In this document: positions 13,157 to 58,094 of the stretch, one piece after another
Position numbering within the stretch: position 1 is the first letter of the stretch
Layout: the number at the start of each line of letters is the position of its first letter
Made by a program: the position numbers and the translations under genes
Notes under the pieces: generated by a model
What the model was told of the DNA's origin: nothing
Seen by the model: only the letters and a program-made list of their open reading frames with translations
Database searches by the model: none
Assembly (NCBI RefSeq): GCF_001548095.1
Contig: NZ_AP014815.1
Span: 3,099,656-3,163,655 of the forward strand
From: Geminocystis sp. NIES-3708
GTDB taxonomy: Bacteria; Cyanobacteriota; Cyanobacteriia; Cyanobacteriales; Cyanobacteriaceae
Length of the DNA: 64,000 nucleotides
Reading direction: 5' to 3'

Positions 13157-14367
13157 ATGTTAAACAATTTAAAAAAAAATGGCTACAGTATTTAGAATGG
13201 TTTTATGAAACTTCTACCACAGTTGTTATTATTGTTTTCCTATTTTTCTTAATTCCTATTATTATTTGGATAGATATAGAAGAAGTAAAATTCTTTAAAA
13301 ATATTATTGAAATTTTATTAGAAAAAGGAGAAGTAATAGCTATTTTGTCAGCTATACTACTTTATTTTAAAGAAGCTCGTAATCGCAAAAAAAGAGAACA
13401 TTATGAAGCGTGGCAAGTAATTAATTCTGCCCATAATCAAGGAGGAAGTGGAGGAAGAATTAATGCTTTAGAAGATTTGAATAAAGATCATGTTTCTTTA
13501 GAAAATTTAACAGTAATAGAAGCAGATTTAACAAAAATTAATTTACAAAAAGCCGATTTAGGAAAAGCTAATTTTGCAAAATCTCGTTTAGAAAGAGCTA
13601 ATTTACAAGAAGCTGTTTTAGTTAGTGCTAATTTACAAGAAGCTGTTTTAGTAGGTGCTAATTTAGAAAATGCAATTTTAAGTAATGCTAATCTTCAAGG
13701 TGCCGATTTACGGAAGGTTAATTTTAAAAATGCAATGTTATTTAATGTTAATCTTCAAGATGCAACTTTAACAGGCACAAATTTTGAACAAGCAGTTTTA
13801 AGTAATGCTAAATTACAAGGTGCAATTTTAAGTAAAGCTGATTTTAGTCAAGCTATTTTAGATAATGCCAAGTTACAAGGTTGCATTTTAAACAAGAGTA
13901 ATTTTCAAGGTGCAAATTTAAGTAATACTAATTTTGAAAAAGCCATATTACAGGAAGTCAATTTCTCTCAAGCCAATGTTTTTAATGCTAATTTTGATGA
14001 AGCTGATTTAAGTGAAGCTGATTTAACGAATGTCATTAATTTAACTGAAAAACAAATTTTTAAAGCTATAATTTGTAAAACATTATTACCGAATAAAATT
14101 ATTATTGATTCTAATCGAGATTGTAATGTTAAAGTAGAACAAATTTTTCAAGAAGATGGACAACTTTCTGAGGAAGAAAAAAAACAATTATTAAGATTAA
14201 AAAACTTTATTCAACTTGCTTCAGAAGATGGTAAAATTTCTCAAGATGAAATGAAAACTATTGAATCTTTAATTACTTCTGATCATAGAATTAATATTCA
14301 AGAGTTAAAAATTTTACAAGAATTGATTAATTCTAAAATTGAAAAGGGAGAATTAAATTTAGAATGA
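13157..14367 (+). CDS. Pentapeptide-repeat membrane protein, apparent frameshift at an A9 run
   Basis: The reading frame encoding the repeats is open from about 13054 but has no ATG, GTG or TTG before the TTG at 13345. That TTG would lie after a clear membrane segment (VVIIVFLFFLIPIIIW, about 13222-13269) that is in frame. In the next frame ATG 13157 reads MLNNLKK and runs into a run of nine A at 13171-13179. One more A, or slippage there, joins it exactly to the membrane segment and the rest. After the membrane helix and a short basic region come about 25 A(N/D)Lxx pentapeptide repeats, which fold as a right-handed quadrilateral beta-helix. A helical C-terminal domain (about 80 residues) with EEKKQLLRLKNFI and a DGKISQDEM acidic loop follows. 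No function is assigned. The start coordinate assumes the frameshift; the uninterrupted alternative is 13345-14367. Confidence 0.75.
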
Positions 14368-14503
14368 TTATTAATTGATCGCTTTTATTAGATTCAAAAA
14401 TTATCAATAATTGATGATTAATATTTGAGAAATAACTTTTTTTATAGTAAATGCTATTGATATTGTTATGGGTTAGTCTATATTTATTTGAGTATAAAAA
14501 ATA

Positions 14504-15049
14504 ATGAAAAAAAGAATAAATAAAATTGAATTTATTTTTGAAAATCTTATTTGGAATTTTCGTTTTTTTGTTTTATTTCCTGTTATTTTTAGTTTATTTA
14601 GTTCCTTAAAATTTTTTATTATTGGTAGTTTAGATATTTGGGCAGGATTAATTTTAAAGTTTAATGTTAAAGATCCAGAAGGAGCAATTACTTATAAAAT
14701 TGTCTCTTATATTATTGGTGGTATCGATTATTATTTAATTGGTATTGTCTTATTAATTTTTAGTTTTGGTATTTACGAACTTTTTATTTCTAAAATTGAT
14801 ATTCGATTTGAGCAAGACGAAATTAATATTCTTCAAAGTGAATCTTTAGAAGAGTTAAAAGGAAAATTGGTTCAAGTTATTGTAGTCGCATTAATCGTAA
14901 GTTTATTTAAAAAAATGTTAAATTTAGAAGTAAAACAAGCTAGTGATTTAGCATATATTGCTTTATCTATCTTACTGATTTCTATAAGTAGTTATTTACT
15001 TCAATTACAACATAAAAGTTCTCATAAATCTCACCACGAAAATCATTAA
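14504..15049 (+). CDS. UPF0114/YqhA-family membrane protein
   Basis: A 181-residue integral membrane protein with about four hydrophobic helices (roughly residues 20-40, 62-95, 122-140, 150-165). It has the family blocks ENLIWNFRFFVLFPVI at the N-terminus and LVQVIVVALIVSLFKKML in the second half. The C-terminus is His/Ser-rich (HKSSHKSHHENH). No activity has been proven for this family. It lies between the pentapeptide membrane protein and the ion channel, all in the same direction with gaps of 136 and 42 bases, so the three may be one transcription unit of membrane proteins (inference). Confidence 0.82.
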   Translation: MKKRINKIEFIFENLIWNFRFFVLFPVIFSLFSSLKFFIIGSLDIWAGLILKFNVKDPEGAITYKIVSYIIGGIDYYLIGIVLLIFSFGIYELFISKIDIRFEQDEINILQSESLEELKGKLVQVIVVALIVSLFKKMLNLEVKQASDLAYIALSILLISISSYLLQLQHKSSHKSHHENH

Positions 15050-51622: not shown

Positions 51623-52486
51623 TTACATTAGAGCCTCATCAGTTTTTAATTGATCACCAATTTCGATAATTCCATCATTTATAGCAATAAGATTTTGTCC
51701 AAACATAATTCCTTCAGTTGTATTACGAAAATTACTTAATGTTAATAAAGGTTCTTTTTCAGGATTTGTTTTACCAGTTTTTTGATCGGTGGTAGTAATT
51801 ATACAACGACTACAGGATTTAACCACTGAAAAATTAACTTCCCCAATCGCAATTTTTTGCCATGTATCTTCCATAAAAGAAAATTCACTTTCCACTACAA
51901 TATTAGGACGAAAACGATCCATACTCACCTGAAATTGTTCTGAGGAATATTTATTTTTTAAACGTTGATTTAATGCTTCTAAAGAGGCGGTATTAGTTAA
52001 TAAAAAAGGAAACCCATCAGCGAAACTCACAGGTTGATTTTCACGGGTGGAATACCGAGAATTAATGACTCGAATATACTCATCTGATTGTTGAACTAAA
52101 CGACAAGATATGTCTATTTTTAAGGCATTTTTAAACCAGTTTGCCACTTCATCTCCCTGATCAATGGCCATAGTATGATCACTCCAAACCTTAACTTTAA
52201 TATTTTTTTTAGTATTAGAAGGAATTAATTGAAACGGTGATATATTATCATATTCACTACTTAAATCAAGTGAATTATTGTTAATTTTCACTTTAATAGT
52301 TGCTAATTCTGGATATTGTCTTTGAGTCAAAAATTTACCTTGGTCATCGACTAACATAAATTGACGATCATAAATATTAGAATCAGAAAAATATCGTAAA
52401 CCTTTAGGAGTAATTAATGCTTTTTTTAGACTAATGCCTTGACAAGATTTGATGGGATAAAGAAAAATACCGCTAACTTTCATCAT
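51623..52486 (-). CDS. MOSC-domain protein
   Basis: A 287-residue protein; the first two codons are both ATG, so the start could be 52486 or 52483. The N-terminal beta-barrel domain begins MKVSGIFLYPIKSCQG, where the Lys-Ser-Cys-Gln/Glu-Gly block is characteristic. The MOSC domain carries the Cys of SCSRCIITTTDQKTG (about 223-227) that binds molybdenum cofactor or a sulfur carrier. Eukaryotic mARC and bacterial YcbX relatives reduce N-hydroxylated compounds. It is the last gene in a run of five minus-strand genes and follows the patatin gene by 36 bases. Confidence 0.88.
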   Translation of the reverse strand: MMKVSGIFLYPIKSCQGISLKKALITPKGLRYFSDSNIYDRQFMLVDDQGKFLTQRQYPELATIKVKINNNSLDLSSEYDNISPFQLIPSNTKKNIKVKVWSDHTMAIDQGDEVANWFKNALKIDISCRLVQQSDEYIRVINSRYSTRENQPVSFADGFPFLLTNTASLEALNQRLKNKYSSEQFQVSMDRFRPNIVVESEFSFMEDTWQKIAIGEVNFSVVKSCSRCIITTTDQKTGKTNPEKEPLLTLSNFRNTTEGIMFGQNLIAINDGIIEIGDQLKTDEALM

Positions 52487-52522: not shown

Positions 52523-54607
52523 TTATGTTATATCTGTAGTAGCTATGACCATAATCTGTTTGATAAAGTGATGTAAAATTTCTTCATCTGATGAACTTGA
52601 TTGAGGAAAAGATATGGAGATGATTTTGAACCATATTAATGCTGCATTTTCAAATTCTTTGAATCCTAATTGTTCTAATTCATTGCGAAATTTATGACCA
52701 AAATCATTCAGTGTTTTAAGATCATTCCTATATTGGTATAATTCACGTAATTTTAGCATTGTTTCCCCTGAGTTATTAGAATTATCTGAGTTACTATAAA
52801 GAACACCAATTTTATTCGCTGAATATTCTAAAAGATTATAACAAGCCGCCACAAACCCACAGGCAATAACGACTTCTGCGGCAGTTGTTTTTTTGGAGTC
52901 TCCTGATTCAGTGGCAAAGGTGATAAATGATTCTGTTGTGCTATCTGTTTTCCAGATACAAGTTGATTCATCTTTTAAAATATCATCAATTAAAGATTTA
53001 GATGGACCACTTTTTTCTTTACTTTCTACATTGCAATGGGTGTACCATTTTAGCCAAAGAGTTGTCGGCAAAGCAGTTGCAAGTTTGGTAAGGCAGATGA
53101 TACTTTTGAGGTTATTATCTTCATTCTTAAAGGTTTCTATCTGATAATCTGAAGCAGAATTCTGACTACTCATCAATGCCAAAACTAAAGTATTGATTTT
53201 ACGCATTTCTCGTAAGATTGCTTCTGAATCTGATTCTGAATTATCCGCCAAACTTTCTTGAGAAAGTTCTGTTAATTTCGGGACAAGTTCGCTTAATGCC
53301 GTATCGGGATCATTTCTGTTATAAAGATCAAAGATCAAATTACGGAGGAGGTTTATTTTCTTATTTTCTTGGTCATAATTTTTGTTTTCTTGTTCATATT
53401 TATACTGTAAAAACTGATAAGTTAAGTTGCGATTTCTTTTTAAAAATGCTCCAAATGTAGGAGATAGTTCTTTTATTCGATTAGGAATTAACTTTGCTAA
53501 TTTATTTTTATCAAGCGATCGCCAAGATTGAGATGTTGAAGCGTTAACTTCTTTTATGCCTACTTTAGATACCAACCAATTCACCAATTTAGAATAAAGA
53601 TTGAACTTTTGAAAGATAGAATCAAGTAATGTGACAAGTAAATTTACAACATGAGGAAGTTGTTCAAACAAAGTATTAGGATCATTTTCTTTGTTTAGTT
53701 GATCGGGATCTAATAAAGCACTTGACGGTTCAAGATTATCTGCATCTGTAGCAATTACTAGTTTTATAGGATAACGAAGAGTTATTTTTTGTTCTTGATT
53801 AGGATTCTCAAAATTTGGTCTTAAAGATTCAATAGAAGTTAAGGCTAAGTTATCATAAAGACCTGCATCCATTAAAGCAACACTTTTCTGATTTTTGAGT
53901 ACTTCTTTTAAGCAACCTTCACTATAAAAATTATCGGGAAAAATTATCGGTTCAAAACCAATAGGAAAGCAAGAAGAAGCCGCAATCATGTCTCCTAATT
54001 TCAAGTTTTGACAACATTCTATCATTTCTGAATTAGCGGAATTAGGATCAGATACATCAATAAATGTATTGCCAATAACCATTCCTTTTTTTGTTGTCTG
54101 CGTCCGCAACATTGCGAATCTGAATAAAGACGCATCTGTCATATTTGTGGCATTAATACTTAAGCAATCGGGAGATGTATCAGTTGTTGTTAGTAACTCC
54201 CAAATTTGCTCTGTCATCATTGTATTTTCTGAATTTTCAAGTATTTCTTGCAATTGCTCTTGATAACAATTCGCCGCTTTTTTGATCATTTTTTCCTCTT
54301 CACCCAAGTTAGATAAAATAGCATTTGCAACTATGTCGCTTTCTAAAAATTTTTTCAAGGGATGATAGAATTTATCCATAAAGTTTGACATCTCAAATGA
54401 ATCATTTTTATGTTCAGAATAGAAATGGGCTTTAGCTACCAGAAAAAAAGCGGCTGTAATTGAACCACCAGAGGCAGATGAAATGGCTTGAACTTTTTCC
54501 ATTAAACCAATCCGTTTCAATAAAACCATTGTTCCTAAAGAGAATCCTGCTGCTCGAAATCCGCCACCAGAAAATGTTAAGCCAATTGTGCGATGTTGAA
54601 TATTCAT
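52523..54607 (-). CDS. Patatin-like phospholipase
   Basis: A 694-residue protein, larger than a simple patatin (about 300). The N-terminal lipase domain has the oxyanion loop SGGGFRAAG (13-21), a nucleophile elbow SASGGS with Ser46 (first Gly of GxSxG replaced by Ser), and the catalytic Asp in MDAGLYDN near 247. The C-terminal 300 residues, Asn/Ser/Leu-rich, resemble no family I know; a YQYRND-type segment and predicted helices are visible. No signal peptide or membrane segment is present. The enzyme class releases fatty acids from membrane lipids. It follows the membrane-anchored gene by 85 bases on the same strand. Confidence 0.82.
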   Translation of the reverse strand: MNIQHRTIGLTFSGGGFRAAGFSLGTMVLLKRIGLMEKVQAISSASGGSITAAFFLVAKAHFYSEHKNDSFEMSNFMDKFYHPLKKFLESDIVANAILSNLGEEEKMIKKAANCYQEQLQEILENSENTMMTEQIWELLTTTDTSPDCLSINATNMTDASLFRFAMLRTQTTKKGMVIGNTFIDVSDPNSANSEMIECCQNLKLGDMIAASSCFPIGFEPIIFPDNFYSEGCLKEVLKNQKSVALMDAGLYDNLALTSIESLRPNFENPNQEQKITLRYPIKLVIATDADNLEPSSALLDPDQLNKENDPNTLFEQLPHVVNLLVTLLDSIFQKFNLYSKLVNWLVSKVGIKEVNASTSQSWRSLDKNKLAKLIPNRIKELSPTFGAFLKRNRNLTYQFLQYKYEQENKNYDQENKKINLLRNLIFDLYNRNDPDTALSELVPKLTELSQESLADNSESDSEAILREMRKINTLVLALMSSQNSASDYQIETFKNEDNNLKSIICLTKLATALPTTLWLKWYTHCNVESKEKSGPSKSLIDDILKDESTCIWKTDSTTESFITFATESGDSKKTTAAEVVIACGFVAACYNLLEYSANKIGVLYSNSDNSNNSGETMLKLRELYQYRNDLKTLNDFGHKFRNELEQLGFKEFENAALIWFKIISISFPQSSSSDEEILHHFIKQIMVIATTDIT

Positions 54608-54692
54608 AGTGTAAAAACTCCATTTTTAGAAAAATTACGGTAAGTATTTCGTGAAAATTGTTAATAAATTTGGCTATTTATCCTGTTAGCCC

Positions 54693-55589
54693 TTACGGTA
54701 TTTTGTTGGCATCAATCCAAATTTCAAATTGTTTTTTAGGGAGATTAGGATAATTTTCTGATAGATCACGGATGACAAAACATCCTTCTGGTTTTTCAGG
54801 ACAATATTTTTGGTTAAGAGTTGCTTGTAGCTGATTAGCTAACTCTTCTTCGTCCGTATGGAAAAACCGAACATCTCCATATTTGCCAGAAGGAGAATTA
54901 TATTCTGCTATAAATTCTATCCCTGGAGCATTCCATTCCTGTGATAATGTTTCTCTGAACTTATCAATATCTTCTCTCTTACTTTGATTGTTATATTGAA
55001 TAAAAACTAAACCTTTTTTTTCATCTTTAGCTTGTTCTGTTGTTTTTAACAAAGCACTCACAAAAGCATTGTTTTTTTCCATAGTAGATTTATCTATTGA
55101 TTTTTCACTTGTATCTAGATTAGGATCAGTTTTACTTTCTGGTGTTTGTGCTATTTTTGATTTCATTTCTTCTAGTTTTTCGGGATCGAGTGCTTCAATA
55201 ATTTTTAGAGCTTTTTTTGAAATTGGGATATTTTTTTCTTGAGAAACTTGAGAAATATTAGTTTCGAGAATTGTCTCCGATATATCTATTAACATATCTC
55301 GATGTTTAGGCGGTTTTTCCTCAAGAATATATAAAGAATACAGAATACTTAGGGCAATTTCTCGGTTTTCTGCATCGGCGGCTAAGTGATCGATAGTAGT
55401 TTCAAAAAATTTAGCATCCTCTAGTTTTTGATTAACCTTATTAAGATTAATATTGATTAAAACATTTAAAAGTGCAATAATAGAAAGTATTACTACCTCA
55501 GCAATACGAAACTCATTCAAAACAGTTTCTGATCGATTTTTGTTAATCTCAAAAATGTCTTTATCTCCAGAGGAAGGGTTTGTATTCAT
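54693..55589 (-). CDS. Membrane-anchored protein with SPOR-like C-terminal domain
   Basis: A 298-residue protein. One membrane helix (about residues 28-50: EVVILSIIALLNVLININ) leaves a short cytoplasmic N-terminus. A helical region (about 55-120) and a Ser/Lys/Asp-rich linker follow. The C-terminal 120 residues have a two-strand, two-helix pattern (GLVFIQYNNQSKREDIDKFRETL, then GDVRFFHTDEEELANQLQATL) that resembles SPOR-like or LytR_C-type domains; I judge this by pattern only. SPOR domains bind denuded glycan strands in the wall. It lies between the GH19 gene and the patatin gene, all on the minus strand. Confidence 0.65.
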   Translation of the reverse strand: MNTNPSSGDKDIFEINKNRSETVLNEFRIAEVVILSIIALLNVLININLNKVNQKLEDAKFFETTIDHLAADAENREIALSILYSLYILEEKPPKHRDMLIDISETILETNISQVSQEKNIPISKKALKIIEALDPEKLEEMKSKIAQTPESKTDPNLDTSEKSIDKSTMEKNNAFVSALLKTTEQAKDEKKGLVFIQYNNQSKREDIDKFRETLSQEWNAPGIEFIAEYNSPSGKYGDVRFFHTDEEELANQLQATLNQKYCPEKPEGCFVIRDLSENYPNLPKKQFEIWIDANKIP

Positions 55590-55736
55590 GGTTTTAACCT
55601 CTACTTTTTTATCAACGTTGGCGATCGCCGCAAAAGTTTCTTGAATTACGCAGGTTACAATTCAGCAATAACCTTTAATGCGATCGCATCTGTAAAATTT
55701 CCAATAATTTTCCTTTTTCGTGAATATTAGGACTTA

Positions 55737-56504
55737 CTAAAATAAAGTCGTTTTTTGCCACTGTTTCGCATATTCTTCGATTAGCCCAGCACGATCAAGA
55801 CCATTAATTATTTTACGGGCATGGTGAAAATCAACGTGGCTTCCCGAAATATAGTCGCTAAGCTTTTTGCCAGTGAAAGTTCCATTTTTCATGCCGTGGA
55901 CAATGATGAACAGAGAAATATCTGGTTCCATGACCTGGTCTGGGTGTTTGACAAAGTCCTGATTGAGGAGGTTGCTATATTTCTGATAGTTATATTTCCA
56001 CGTAAGTTGAACATACCCACGCCCATAATAAGGAGCATAGCGTCGATTCTTTCCGCCATACTCTGCTATGGGTCGGTAAGTACCTGCCGTTTCATGTTGA
56101 ATGGTTGCCATAATGTAGCAAATTTGGTTGCGATCGGTTATGCCTTGATTATGTGCTTCCTTGGCAATTGCCTGAGCAAGTTGCTCTTTACTTCCTCCAT
56201 TCCACCAGTGGGGTATACTAAAGCGACCAACATTGCCGATGTCCTTCGTTTCCATTAGAGCTTCTGCAAAAGAAGGTCCAAATAATCCTGTCTCGATGTT
56301 GTTCAGATGAACCGCTTTACAAAATTGCTCGATACCTTCTTCCGTTTTGGGACCCCAGAAACCGTCTGGATCGTTTGATCCGTAAGTATAGAGATTTAGA
56401 TCGTGCAAACGAGTTTGTATCTGTTGCAGAAGATCGACATCTTTTTTGAGATCGTCTAGGGAAATAATCAATTTCTCATCGTAGATTTCTTTTAGAGTAG
56501 TCAC
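55737..56504 (-). CDS. GH19 muramidase/chitinase with peptidoglycan-binding-like N-terminus
   Basis: A 255-residue enzyme starting at GTG 56502-56504 with AGGAG nine bases upstream. Residues about 20-85 look like a peptidoglycan-binding repeat (LHDLNLYTYGSNDPDGFWGPKTEEGI). The GH19 domain follows: YIMATIQHETAGTYRPIAEY carries the likely acid Glu138 and base Glu148, with YYGRGYVQLTWKYNYQKYS next. Relatives are phage endolysins and bacterial lysozyme-like chitinases. There is no signal peptide. The DNA is visibly richer in G+C than its neighbours. It follows the CHAP gene by 37 bases. Confidence 0.85.
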   Translation of the reverse strand: MTTLKEIYDEKLIISLDDLKKDVDLLQQIQTRLHDLNLYTYGSNDPDGFWGPKTEEGIEQFCKAVHLNNIETGLFGPSFAEALMETKDIGNVGRFSIPHWWNGGSKEQLAQAIAKEAHNQGITDRNQICYIMATIQHETAGTYRPIAEYGGKNRRYAPYYGRGYVQLTWKYNYQKYSNLLNQDFVKHPDQVMEPDISLFIIVHGMKNGTFTGKKLSDYISGSHVDFHHARKIINGLDRAGLIEEYAKQWQKTTLF

Positions 56505-56541
56505 GGTATTTATCTCCTAAATTAAATTAGCTAATGTTTAT

Positions 56542-57216
56542 CTATAAACGGACGTAGTGGCATGAAGTAATTAGGCGACCGGGTTTACGCATTGCAACTT
56601 CTGTTCCATTAGCACTACCGTCATAATTTGAATTGCCTTCGACCGTAGAAAAATGGTTATTGGTGACGGGACCGTTGACAAAACCTGTATGATAGTGACC
56701 TTGTGGAGTGCCGATGCACAGAAAGATATCTCCGATCTCCGGTTTGGACACAAGACGACCATGTTCTTTTGCCCAGTTATAGAGGGTGGGACAGAAGGCA
56801 GTTTTCGTTAGGGGGTTGGGTTTGCCTAATTTCTTGGCTGCTTCATCTACGCAGTAGTAAACAAAAGCCATACACCAAGGGTTCGGGGAAGGGACTCCAG
56901 CACGTTTGAGGTACTCATCTACTTCTGGACCTTTGTTGCTCCCTAATGGTCTTTCTTTGACACCAACTCGCCGTTGTGCCTCCATAAGAGATGCTACCCC
57001 TAAATCTTGAGAAGGTTGAGTAGCAAAGAGTGCAGCCCATGTTATGGGTCCGACTTCTCCGTCAACTTCGAGCCCGAATGCCTTCTGAAAGGCTGAGACA
57101 CAAGATTCAGTGGTAGGTCCAAAAACTCCAGTTTGTTGAACTCCTAACCGTTCTTGAATTTCTTTAACGGCTTCGCCTGTACTGCCACGTTTAATAATTG
57201 TTTCGGGGTAATCCAT
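56542..57216 (-). CDS. Peptidoglycan-binding plus CHAP amidase/endopeptidase
   Basis: A 224-residue two-domain protein. Residues 1-68 form a PG_binding_1 repeat (RGSTGEAVKEIQERLGV, GVFGPTTESCVSAFQ, DGEVGPITW). The CHAP domain (about 85-224) shows the catalytic Cys115 in NPWCMAFVYY, His176 in GHYHTGFV and an acidic Glu193 in TVEGNSN. Such enzymes cut amide bonds in peptidoglycan. AAGGAAAG lies suitably before ATG 57214-57216. No signal peptide is present, as with the GH19 gene. The composition is unlike the surrounding AT-rich genes, which suggests transfer. A 291-base AT-rich gap lies upstream. Confidence 0.87.
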   Translation of the reverse strand: MDYPETIIKRGSTGEAVKEIQERLGVQQTGVFGPTTESCVSAFQKAFGLEVDGEVGPITWAALFATQPSQDLGVASLMEAQRRVGVKERPLGSNKGPEVDEYLKRAGVPSPNPWCMAFVYYCVDEAAKKLGKPNPLTKTAFCPTLYNWAKEHGRLVSKPEIGDIFLCIGTPQGHYHTGFVNGPVTNNHFSTVEGNSNYDGSANGTEVAMRKPGRLITSCHYVRL

Positions 57217-57507
57217 GGTATTGACTTTCCTTAAATAAATTAAAACAATCTATTGAGTTTTCTTTGCAAATACTCAATCTATTTTTTCGTCTCCACTATA
57301 ACTAACATCTACGTAAAAATACTTAAATAATTTATTTTTCTTAATAGTTTTTCATTAAACTATACGTGTTTTTACTTATTTGAGAGATAAAGATCTGCTT
57401 CTCTTTTTCCCCATCTCTTTTACCGTAAATATATAAGGAATCTAGGCTTATCATGGCAATGATATGTAATAATGCAGAAATATTGCTATCAGAGAATTGT
57501 TTAGTTA

Positions 57508-57840
57508 ATGACAGATAATTATAAACATCTTAAAAATGAAGCCCATGTTGTTCATATTATTGATCAGGATGTTCATAGATTTTATGTTGATGAATCTATG
57601 TTTAAATTAGGTCATTTAATAGAAGGAATTAAGTGTAAACTAATCGATCTTTCTCGCAAGGATTTACACACTGAAAATGAAAAAATAAATCGAAAAAAAT
57701 GGCTACATGACGGGGTAGAAGTAGAAGTATTAAAAGTTGGTGCTTTAGATTGGCAAAAAGGTAAATTAAAATTAAAAGTTACCGTTGAATTTTGCCCCGA
57801 TGAACCAGAATTAAATTTAGATGAATTTAGAGAAAATTAA
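57508..57840 (+). CDS. KGK-domain-type small cyanobacterial protein
   Basis: A 110-residue acidic soluble protein. The end EVEVLKVGALDWQKGKLKLKVTVEFCPDEPELN matches, in my reading, the cyanobacterial KGK family (the W-x-KGK-x-x-x-KV-x-EFCPDE pattern). A Lys-rich helix lies in the middle. No function is known. The HNH gene starts eight bases downstream in the same direction, so they are very likely cotranscribed. Confidence 0.6.
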   Translation: MTDNYKHLKNEAHVVHIIDQDVHRFYVDESMFKLGHLIEGIKCKLIDLSRKDLHTENEKINRKKWLHDGVEVEVLKVGALDWQKGKLKLKVTVEFCPDEPELNLDEFREN

Positions 57841-57848
57841 GAATAAAA

Positions 57849-58094
57849 ATGAGTAAAACTCCTCGTATTCCCATTCCCTTAGAAGTAAGAAAATATATCT
57901 ATAATCGAGACAATTATCAATGTCAGAGCTGTAGAAAAACTATTCAAGAAACAACTTTAAATATTGATCATATTATTCCTTTAGCAAAAGGTGGAAGTAA
58001 TGATATGAGTAATTTACAAACTCTTTGTGTTAAATGTAATCAGGCAAAAAAAGCTAATCTTGATAGTCGTTTTCGTCGTCATTTTAGTAATTAA
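57849..58094 (+). CDS. Small HNH endonuclease
   Basis: An 81-residue single-domain nuclease. It has CQSC and CVKC zinc knuckles around the catalytic segment LNIDHIIPLAKGGSNDMSNLQTLC (His in DHI, Asn in DMSNLQ). The N-terminal PRIPIPLEVRKYIYNRDNYQ is the usual start of the small HNH family in cyanobacteria. It is eight bases behind the KGK gene. DNA or RNA target unknown; relatives occur as restriction, homing or phage terminase-associated nucleases. Confidence 0.88.
   Translation: MSKTPRIPIPLEVRKYIYNRDNYQCQSCRKTIQETTLNIDHIIPLAKGGSNDMSNLQTLCVKCNQAKKANLDSRFRRHFSN

What the first reader, a model, noticed from the sequence alone, without database searches (positions are those of the whole stretch)
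52523..57216. CHAP - GH19 - membrane/SPOR-like - patatin gene run as a possible lytic or antagonistic cassette
Two peptidoglycan hydrolases with wall-binding domains but no signal peptide, a single-pass membrane protein with a wall-binding-like end and a patatin lipase are consecutive on one strand (gaps 37, 147, 85). The first two genes differ in base composition from neighbours. Together they could attack wall and membrane: a lysis module left from a phage, a programmed death or defence effector set, or cargo of an injection system. I know no described system with this exact set.
Basis: partly seen in the sequence, partly recalled or inferred. Interest (0 to 1): 0.65.

Follow-up and report, generated by a model that had tools for sequence, protein, structure and literature searches.

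The report
Strain-specific wall-and-membrane hydrolase gene run
Four neighbouring genes found together only in this Geminocystis-type cyanobacterium encode two cell-wall-cutting enzymes, a membrane protein and a membrane-lipid-cutting enzyme; one wall cutter belongs to a branch that other cyanobacteria usually keep beside caspase or trypsin-like cell-death genes, so the set is best read as a self-destruct (lysis) effector kit rather than a phage leftover.

Summary
In detail: four intact same-strand genes (PGB-CHAP, PGB-GH19, one-TM protein, patatin) with gaps 37/147/85 nt; the first two have the highest GC3 in the window. The gene order is unique: patatin and TM protein have no relative in 385 other cyanobacterial genomes, plasmids or phages, and the flanks occur without the cassette in sister genomes. 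The phage-remnant idea is weakened: the GH19 lies outside the clade holding cyanobacterial prophage endolysins and inside a fully supported clade of 14, in which 8 of the 13 others clearly (10 with two weak calls) adjoin or are fused to caspase or trypsin-like peptidase genes. Its nearest relative (72%) is a VanY-GH19 protein near a caspase-nSTAND1 gene; Planktothrix has caspase-M74-GH19 in one ORF. No contractile sheath was found in the genome. Best reading: recently assembled cytoplasmic lysis effectors related to caspase/STAND conflict systems; phospholipase and membrane protein breach the membrane, wall hydrolases finish lysis. That the four genes act as one unit, and the trigger, are not shown. 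New variant of a known kind; the link between wall hydrolases and caspase-STAND genes is the more interesting result.

The parts
56542..57216 (-). PG_binding_1-CHAP peptidoglycan peptidase/amidase gene, 224 aa, no signal peptide
   Evidence: closest relatives 36-40% identity: Variovorax plasmid gene, Microcystis phage Mae-JY24 CHAP
55737..56504 (-). PG_binding_1-GH19 lysozyme-type gene, 255 aa, GTG start with GGAG ribosome site, no signal peptide
   Evidence: 72-73% to Crocosphaera VanY-GH19 (L102/G608), 69% to stand-alone GH19 of G576
54693..55589 (-). Single-pass membrane protein of unknown family, 298 aa
   Evidence: no relative found
55449..55505 (-). Predicted transmembrane segment of the membrane protein (aa 29-47)
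   Evidence: Kyte-Doolittle mean 2.48 over 19 residues
54714..55013 (-). C-terminal alpha/beta region (aa 193-292), SPOR/LytR_C-like only by low-confidence secondary structure
   Evidence: (pLDDT 35-71 over this stretch), inference
52523..54607 (-). Patatin-like phospholipase gene, 694 aa; patatin domain aa 10-255, helical C-terminal region of unknown family
   Evidence: (weak match to a patatin-fold structure, E 0.005); no relative found
57217..57507 (.). 291-nt divergent intergenic region upstream of the cassette; likely promoter region (not demonstrated)
   Evidence: promoter-like matches no more than chance
51623..52486 (-). MOSC gene, flank 36 nt downstream of the patatin gene on the same strand; also in sister genomes without the cassette
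57508..58094 (+). KGK and HNH genes, other flank; also in sister genomes without the cassette

Best explanation
The run is a recently assembled, strain-specific set of cytoplasmic lysis effectors of the kind that cyanobacterial caspase/trypsin/STAND conflict (programmed-death) systems carry. Proposed mechanism: the two wall hydrolases have no signal peptide and stay harmless in the cytoplasm; the patatin phospholipase, helped by or anchored through the one-TM protein, damages the cytoplasmic membrane when the set is switched on; CHAP (peptide or amide bonds) and GH19 (glycan bonds) then reach and cut peptidoglycan and the cell bursts. Shown: intact enzymes, clustering, absence from relatives, GH19 ancestry in a clade linked to caspase/trypsin genes. 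Inferred: co-expression, that the four act together, that the target is the cell's own envelope, and any trigger (phage infection or stress).
For: GH19 tree: window GH19 + L102 + L207 100/100; inside a 14-row clade (100/100) separate from 23 rows that include the cyanobacterial prophage endolysins (larger tree). In that clade: L102 VanY-PGB-GH19, TPR lipoprotein, Trypco1, caspase-nSTAND1; L209, L210, L046 M74-PGB-GH19 with caspase-nSTAND1-WD40; L211 and L103 beside caspase; L110 caspase-nSTAND1 fragment-M74-PGB-GH19 in one ORF; L051/L079 of the same genus with GH19 in one run with trypsin-type genes, amidase and trypsin-M74. Alpha/beta-hydrolase or lipase genes in L103, L046, L209, GDSL-like domain in L079, which parallels the patatin here. 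In the wider tree's 41-row clade, control neighbours (148 proteins) hold at most one caspase and one trypsin_2 gene, since every family with two or more members is listed and neither appears. The stand-alone GH19 of G576 is preceded, 28 nt away, by a protein with several hydrophobic stretches by eye. Precedent: EAD1-linked lysozyme and papain-like peptidoglycan peptidase effectors (Kaur 2020, PMC7159879); phospholipases as CARD-NLR death effectors and LypABC-dependent lysis (PMC13236601).
Against: No caspase, trypsin, STAND or EAD gene or domain lies in or next to the cassette; the genome's single caspase is 1.26 Mb away and no nSTAND1 passes cut-off. The four-gene order occurs nowhere else, so joint function has no comparative support; CHAP/GH19 and TM/patatin differ in base composition and may have come separately. 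Patatin and TM have no relatives to inform function. The closest stand-alone relative, L207, has no recognised protease neighbour.
Confidence: 0.42

Rival explanations
1. Chance neighbours: two independent acquisitions, a CHAP-GH19 pair from a higher-GC cyanobacterium and a TM-patatin pair of unknown origin, sit side by side in a variable chromosomal spot without acting together.
For: Different GC3 (0.37-0.40 against 0.18-0.24); 147-nt gap between the pairs; order not seen in any genome searched with patatin, TM or GH19; MOSC neighbours vary between sister genomes.
Against: Same strand, no terminator-like site in the gaps; the wall hydrolase + lipase theme recurs at related loci.
Confidence: 0.3
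2. Effectors exported or injected to kill competitors, released by lysis or a delivery machine rather than acting on the producer.
For: Wall and lipid hydrolases without signal peptides are typical injected cargo (general knowledge); eCIS-associated toxins include peptidoglycan hydrolases (PMC8213781); L103 M74-GH19 lies beside sheath-, tube- and DUF4255-like ORFs (assigned by eye).
Against: No contractile sheath family PF04984 in the genome; no PAAR or DUF4157 domain in the four proteins and no known delivery partner in the neighbours scanned.
Confidence: 0.15
3. Domesticated remains of a prophage lysis module (endolysins, membrane protein as holin or spanin).
For: PHROG endolysin matches for CHAP and GH19; GH19 relatives sit in prophage-like gene runs in G009, G028, G106, G001; CHAP 40% to Microcystis phage genes.
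Against: GH19 outside the clade with those prophage genes; no phage gene nearby; no phage relative of patatin or TM; holins and spanins are usually far smaller than 298 aa (general knowledge).
Confidence: 0.11

Closest known systems
Kaur et al. 2020 System 3 (trypsin-NucA core with EAD1-linked effectors; PMC7159879)
   Different: Described mostly in alphaproteobacteria, joined by EAD1, with trypsin and NucA cores; here no EAD, trypsin or NucA in or beside the cassette, and a patatin is added.
Caspase-nSTAND1 loci with M74- or VanY-PGB-GH19 proteins in cyanobacteria (seen here; L046, L102, L103, L110, L209, L210, L211)
   Same: Homologous PGB-GH19 module; wall peptidase + GH19 + lipase-type hydrolase theme.
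   Different: In the window the wall peptidase is CHAP in a separate gene, the lipase is a patatin, and the caspase/STAND part is missing.
CARD-NLR anti-phage systems and LypABC of Caulobacter (PMC13236601)
   Same: Phospholipase can be the death effector; LypABC is needed for host lysis.
   Different: No CARD, NLR or trypsin-like gene here; LypABC has no wall hydrolase of its own.
Phage lysis cassettes (endolysin-holin-spanin)
   Same: Cytoplasmic endolysins plus a membrane factor open the envelope in order.
   Different: No holin- or spanin-size protein, no phage genes, patatin not a known lysis gene; GH19 phylogeny separate.
Geminocystis NIES-3709 plasmid pGM3709_07 hydrolase run (NZ_AP014828)
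   Same: Same genus; GH19 in a same-strand run of wall hydrolases and a GDSL-like lipase domain.
   Different: Other wall hydrolases (amidase_2, M74), two trypsin-like proteins, TPR lipoprotein; no CHAP, patatin or TM homologue.

Membership tests
Caspase/STAND (nSTAND1) conflict-system locus | Caspase-fold or trypsin-like peptidase gene in the locus | tested here: not met
   none among the neighbours scanned between 41.4 and 63.3 kb; only caspase of the genome 1.26 Mb away
Caspase/STAND (nSTAND1) conflict-system locus | STAND/NTP-dependent switch protein | tested here: not met
   no nSTAND1 over cut-off in the genome; UvrD helicase flank is not a STAND protein
GH19 lineage associated with caspase/trypsin loci | GH19 groups with that lineage, not with prophage endolysins | tested here: met
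   100/100 clade of 14, nested with L102 and M74-GH19 proteins at 96/89
Kaur 2020 System 3 / EAD-linked effectors | Effector-associated domain (EAD) on the effectors | tested here: not met
   no EAD family in Pfam scan of the four proteins at E 0.1
Kaur 2020 System 3 / EAD-linked effectors | Lysozyme and papain-like peptidoglycan peptidase effectors | tested here: met
   GH19 and CHAP
Phage lysis module | Endolysin related to phage endolysins of the host group | tested here: not met
   GH19 outside prophage-containing clade; CHAP inconclusive
Phage lysis module | Neighbouring phage structural or integration genes | tested here: not met
   neighbours are MOSC, sigma factor, KGK, HNH, UvrD, ABC transporters, NusB
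Phage lysis module | Holin/spanin function of the membrane protein | not testable with these tools
   no homologue, unusable model
Contractile injection system cargo | Sheath/tube machine in the genome | tested here: not met
   no PF04984 match in G000 while controls ring; T6SS sheath family not searched
Known anti-phage defence system (PADLOC 2023) | Match to a defence protein model | tested here: not met
   no family at E 0.1 for any of the four
Patatin-like phospholipase | GGGxR oxyanion motif, nucleophile Ser, catalytic Asp | tested here: met
   GGGFR at 14, SASGGS with S46 (GxSxG with first Gly as Ser), DAG at 247; PF01734 46.3 bits
SPOR/LytR_C wall-binding domain in TM protein | Profile match | tested here: not met
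   no Pfam match of that kind at E 0.1

The most novel reading that the evidence does not exclude
Cyanobacteria use a family of dedicated cytoplasmic wall-lytic modules (endopeptidase + PGB + GH19, with a lipase) as the execution arm of caspase/nSTAND1 death systems, a 'caspase-gated autolysin'; the window cassette is a regulator-free offshoot in which CHAP and patatin fill the peptidase and lipase slots.
Probability: 0.33. Interest if true: 0.72.

Novelty: new variant of a known kind. Interest (0 to 1): 0.45.

Why it matters
What the caspase homologues of cyanobacteria do to kill a cell is unsettled. A repeated neighbourhood of caspase-STAND proteins with enzymes that cut peptidoglycan, including a one-ORF fusion, names concrete candidate executioners and makes 'does caspase activation release a wall hydrolase?' a direct test. 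The window cassette would then be a strain-level example of such effectors moving on their own.

Tried and rejected
Structure: AlphaFold2 single-sequence models of TM (pLDDT 45) and patatin (pLDDT 37) were too poor for fold searches, so none was run. Homologues of TM and patatin: sought in 386 phylum genomes, family genomes (patatin), plasmids, phages, viral contigs and genome contigs (patatin); none. GH19 in viral contigs by peptide patterns: none. CHAP context in viral contigs and plasmids: phage or unrelated; a patatin and a PGB-CHAP gene lie 2 kb apart on Calothrix plasmid pCAL6303.01, but that patatin is not detectably related to this one. Insertion scars: no convincing flanking direct repeat. 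Promoter/terminator scan no better than chance. Rfam: nothing. Injection machine: no sheath. Searching from the Crocosphaera MAG as centre was not accepted by the tool.
Full report
What is there. Four open reading frames lie head to tail on the - strand at 57216-52523: PGB-CHAP (224 aa), PGB-GH19 (255 aa), a one-TM protein (298 aa) and a patatin (694 aa), gaps 37, 147 and 85 nt. Domain calls come from Pfam: patatin 7.4e-12, CHAP 1e-6, GH19 1.1e-5, PG_binding_1 in both hydrolases. Catalytic motifs are intact. Only the membrane protein has a hydrophobic segment long enough for a TM helix, so the other three are predicted cytoplasmic unless released or delivered. GH19 and CHAP rank first and second in GC3 among 52 ORFs of the window; patatin and TM do not stand out. 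The GC3 of GH19 (0.395) is like that of its Crocosphaera relative (0.404), consistent with acquisition from a cyanobacterium of higher GC.

Distribution. The window is in a 4.04 Mb genome whose same-genus relative G009 is Geminocystis sp. NIES-3709. Patatin and TM protein have no match in any of 385 other cyanobacterial genomes or in plasmids and phages. The flanking sigma factor-MOSC and KGK-HNH/UvrD genes are found in sister genomes without the cassette and not next to each other. So the run is an addition to a variable spot of this strain. GH19 relatives exist in 68 of 389 genomes of the order at E 1e-15, most of them distant.

The GH19 lineage. The nearest relatives are a VanY-PGB-PGB-GH19 protein of a Crocosphaera MAG (72-73%, L102 = G608) and a stand-alone GH19 of G576 (69%, L207). 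In a tree of 37 GH19 domains these three form a 100/100 clade, nested (96/89) with M74-PGB-GH19 proteins, inside a 100/100 clade of 14; the other 23 rows include the cyanobacterial prophage endolysins of G009, G001, G028, G106 (and 88-row tree). I labelled as 'protease neighbour' those with a caspase-, trypsin- or gingipain-type gene close by or fused: L102, L103, L046, L110, L209, L210, L211, L051 (clear), L105 and L108 (weak: NAL1_N fragment at a contig end, E 3e-5, below cut-off; C25, E 3e-5, two genes away). All ten fall in the 14-row clade; none of the 23 others carries the label. The label needs 4 changes against 9.0 in shuffles, 0 of 500 as low, but related rows are not independent. A Pfam control on 148 neighbours of the 41-row clade of the larger tree gives at most one caspase and one trypsin_2 gene (every family with two or more members is listed, and neither is there). 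This clade holds both prophage and solitary chromosomal GH19 genes.

Anatomy of the related loci. L102: VanY-PGB2-GH19, TPR lipoprotein, Trypco1 gene, caspase-nSTAND1-pentapeptide. L209, L046: M74-PGB-GH19, caspase-nSTAND1-WD40-periplasmic-binding-like giant, alpha/beta hydrolase. L210: M74-PGB-GH19, WD40 ORF, caspase-nSTAND1-WD40. L211, L103: M74-PGB-GH19, caspase; L103 also CHAT-NACHT and LCAT-like lipase, and upstream ORFs that I read by eye as sheath, tube and DUF4255 of a contractile system. L110: caspase-nSTAND1 fragment-M74-PGB-GH19 in one 892 aa ORF. L079 (same genus, plasmid): trypsin-GDSL, GH19, TPR lipoprotein homologous to that of L102, amidase_2, trypsin-M74. Hence 'wall peptidase + GH19 + lipase-type hydrolase + death-type protease' recurs; the window shows the first three of these slots, filled by CHAP, GH19 and patatin, and lacks the fourth.

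Mechanism. My preferred model is regulated self-lysis: cytoplasmic wall hydrolases let loose by phospholipase/membrane-protein damage. Precedents: Kaur et al. 2020 describe EAD1-linked lysozyme and papain-like peptidoglycan peptidase effectors of trypsin-core conflict systems, 'pointing to a potential attack on peptidoglycan' (PMC7159879); CARD-NLR systems use phospholipases among their death effectors and the CARD-NLR-like LypABC is required for lysis in Caulobacter (PMC13236601). The step from GH19 ancestry to function of the whole cassette is inference. The switch is missing locally: no EAD, STAND, caspase or trypsin.

Rivals. Chance neighbourhood of two gene pairs is the strongest rival: composition differs between the pairs and the order is unique. 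Absence of terminator-like sites and compact spacing speak mildly against it. Injection cargo lacks a machine found in this genome (T6SS sheath not searched). A phage lysis remnant is disfavoured by tree and context.

Limits. The TM protein's 'SPOR-like' end remains unverified; both structure models failed. Patatin's C-terminal 440 residues have no family. Searches by single protein find near relatives only, so distant TM/patatin relatives may exist. Expression, activity and trigger are untested.

Noticed in passing
L110 2110-4788 (Planktothrix sp. PCC 11201; same as L212): One 892 aa ORF joins caspase, a 65-residue nSTAND1 fragment, M74 murein endopeptidase, PG_binding_1 and GH19: a caspase-wall hydrolase fusion.
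   Followed up: partly
L103 36-16753 (Drouetiella hepatica): M74-PGB-GH19, caspase, CHAT-NACHT and LCAT-like lipase genes follow ORFs that look like contractile sheath, tube and DUF4255.
   Followed up: partly
L079 1468-9989 (Geminocystis NIES-3709 plasmid pGM3709_07): Seven-gene same-strand run: trypsin-GDSL, GH19, TPR lipoprotein, amidase_2, trypsin-M74, BNR-like, RoxA-like di-haem protein; looks like another hydrolase kit.
   Followed up: partly
L181 7863-12062 (gammaproteobacterial MAG): A GH19 gene directly followed by a 1156 aa caspase-like protein, from a different GH19 branch: possibly an independent pairing.
   Followed up: no
L082 562-8726 (Calothrix PCC 6303 plasmid): GMC oxidoreductase, patatin, hypothetical and PGB-CHAP genes close together; patatin not detectably related to the window's.
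   Followed up: partly
L207 8023-9846 (G576): Stand-alone GH19 (69% to the window's) is preceded by 28 nt by a 338 aa protein with several hydrophobic segments and no Pfam family; a transposase-like gene lies upstream.
   Followed up: partly
window 56505-56541 and 57217-57240: The leaders of CHAP and GH19 are alike (TTTAAGGAAAGTCAATACC / TTTAGGAGATAAATACC before the start codon), suggesting a shared leader.
   Followed up: no
window 14001-15000: Very AT-rich kilobase (GC 0.216) with strong GC skew (0.287), unlike the rest of the window.
   Followed up: no
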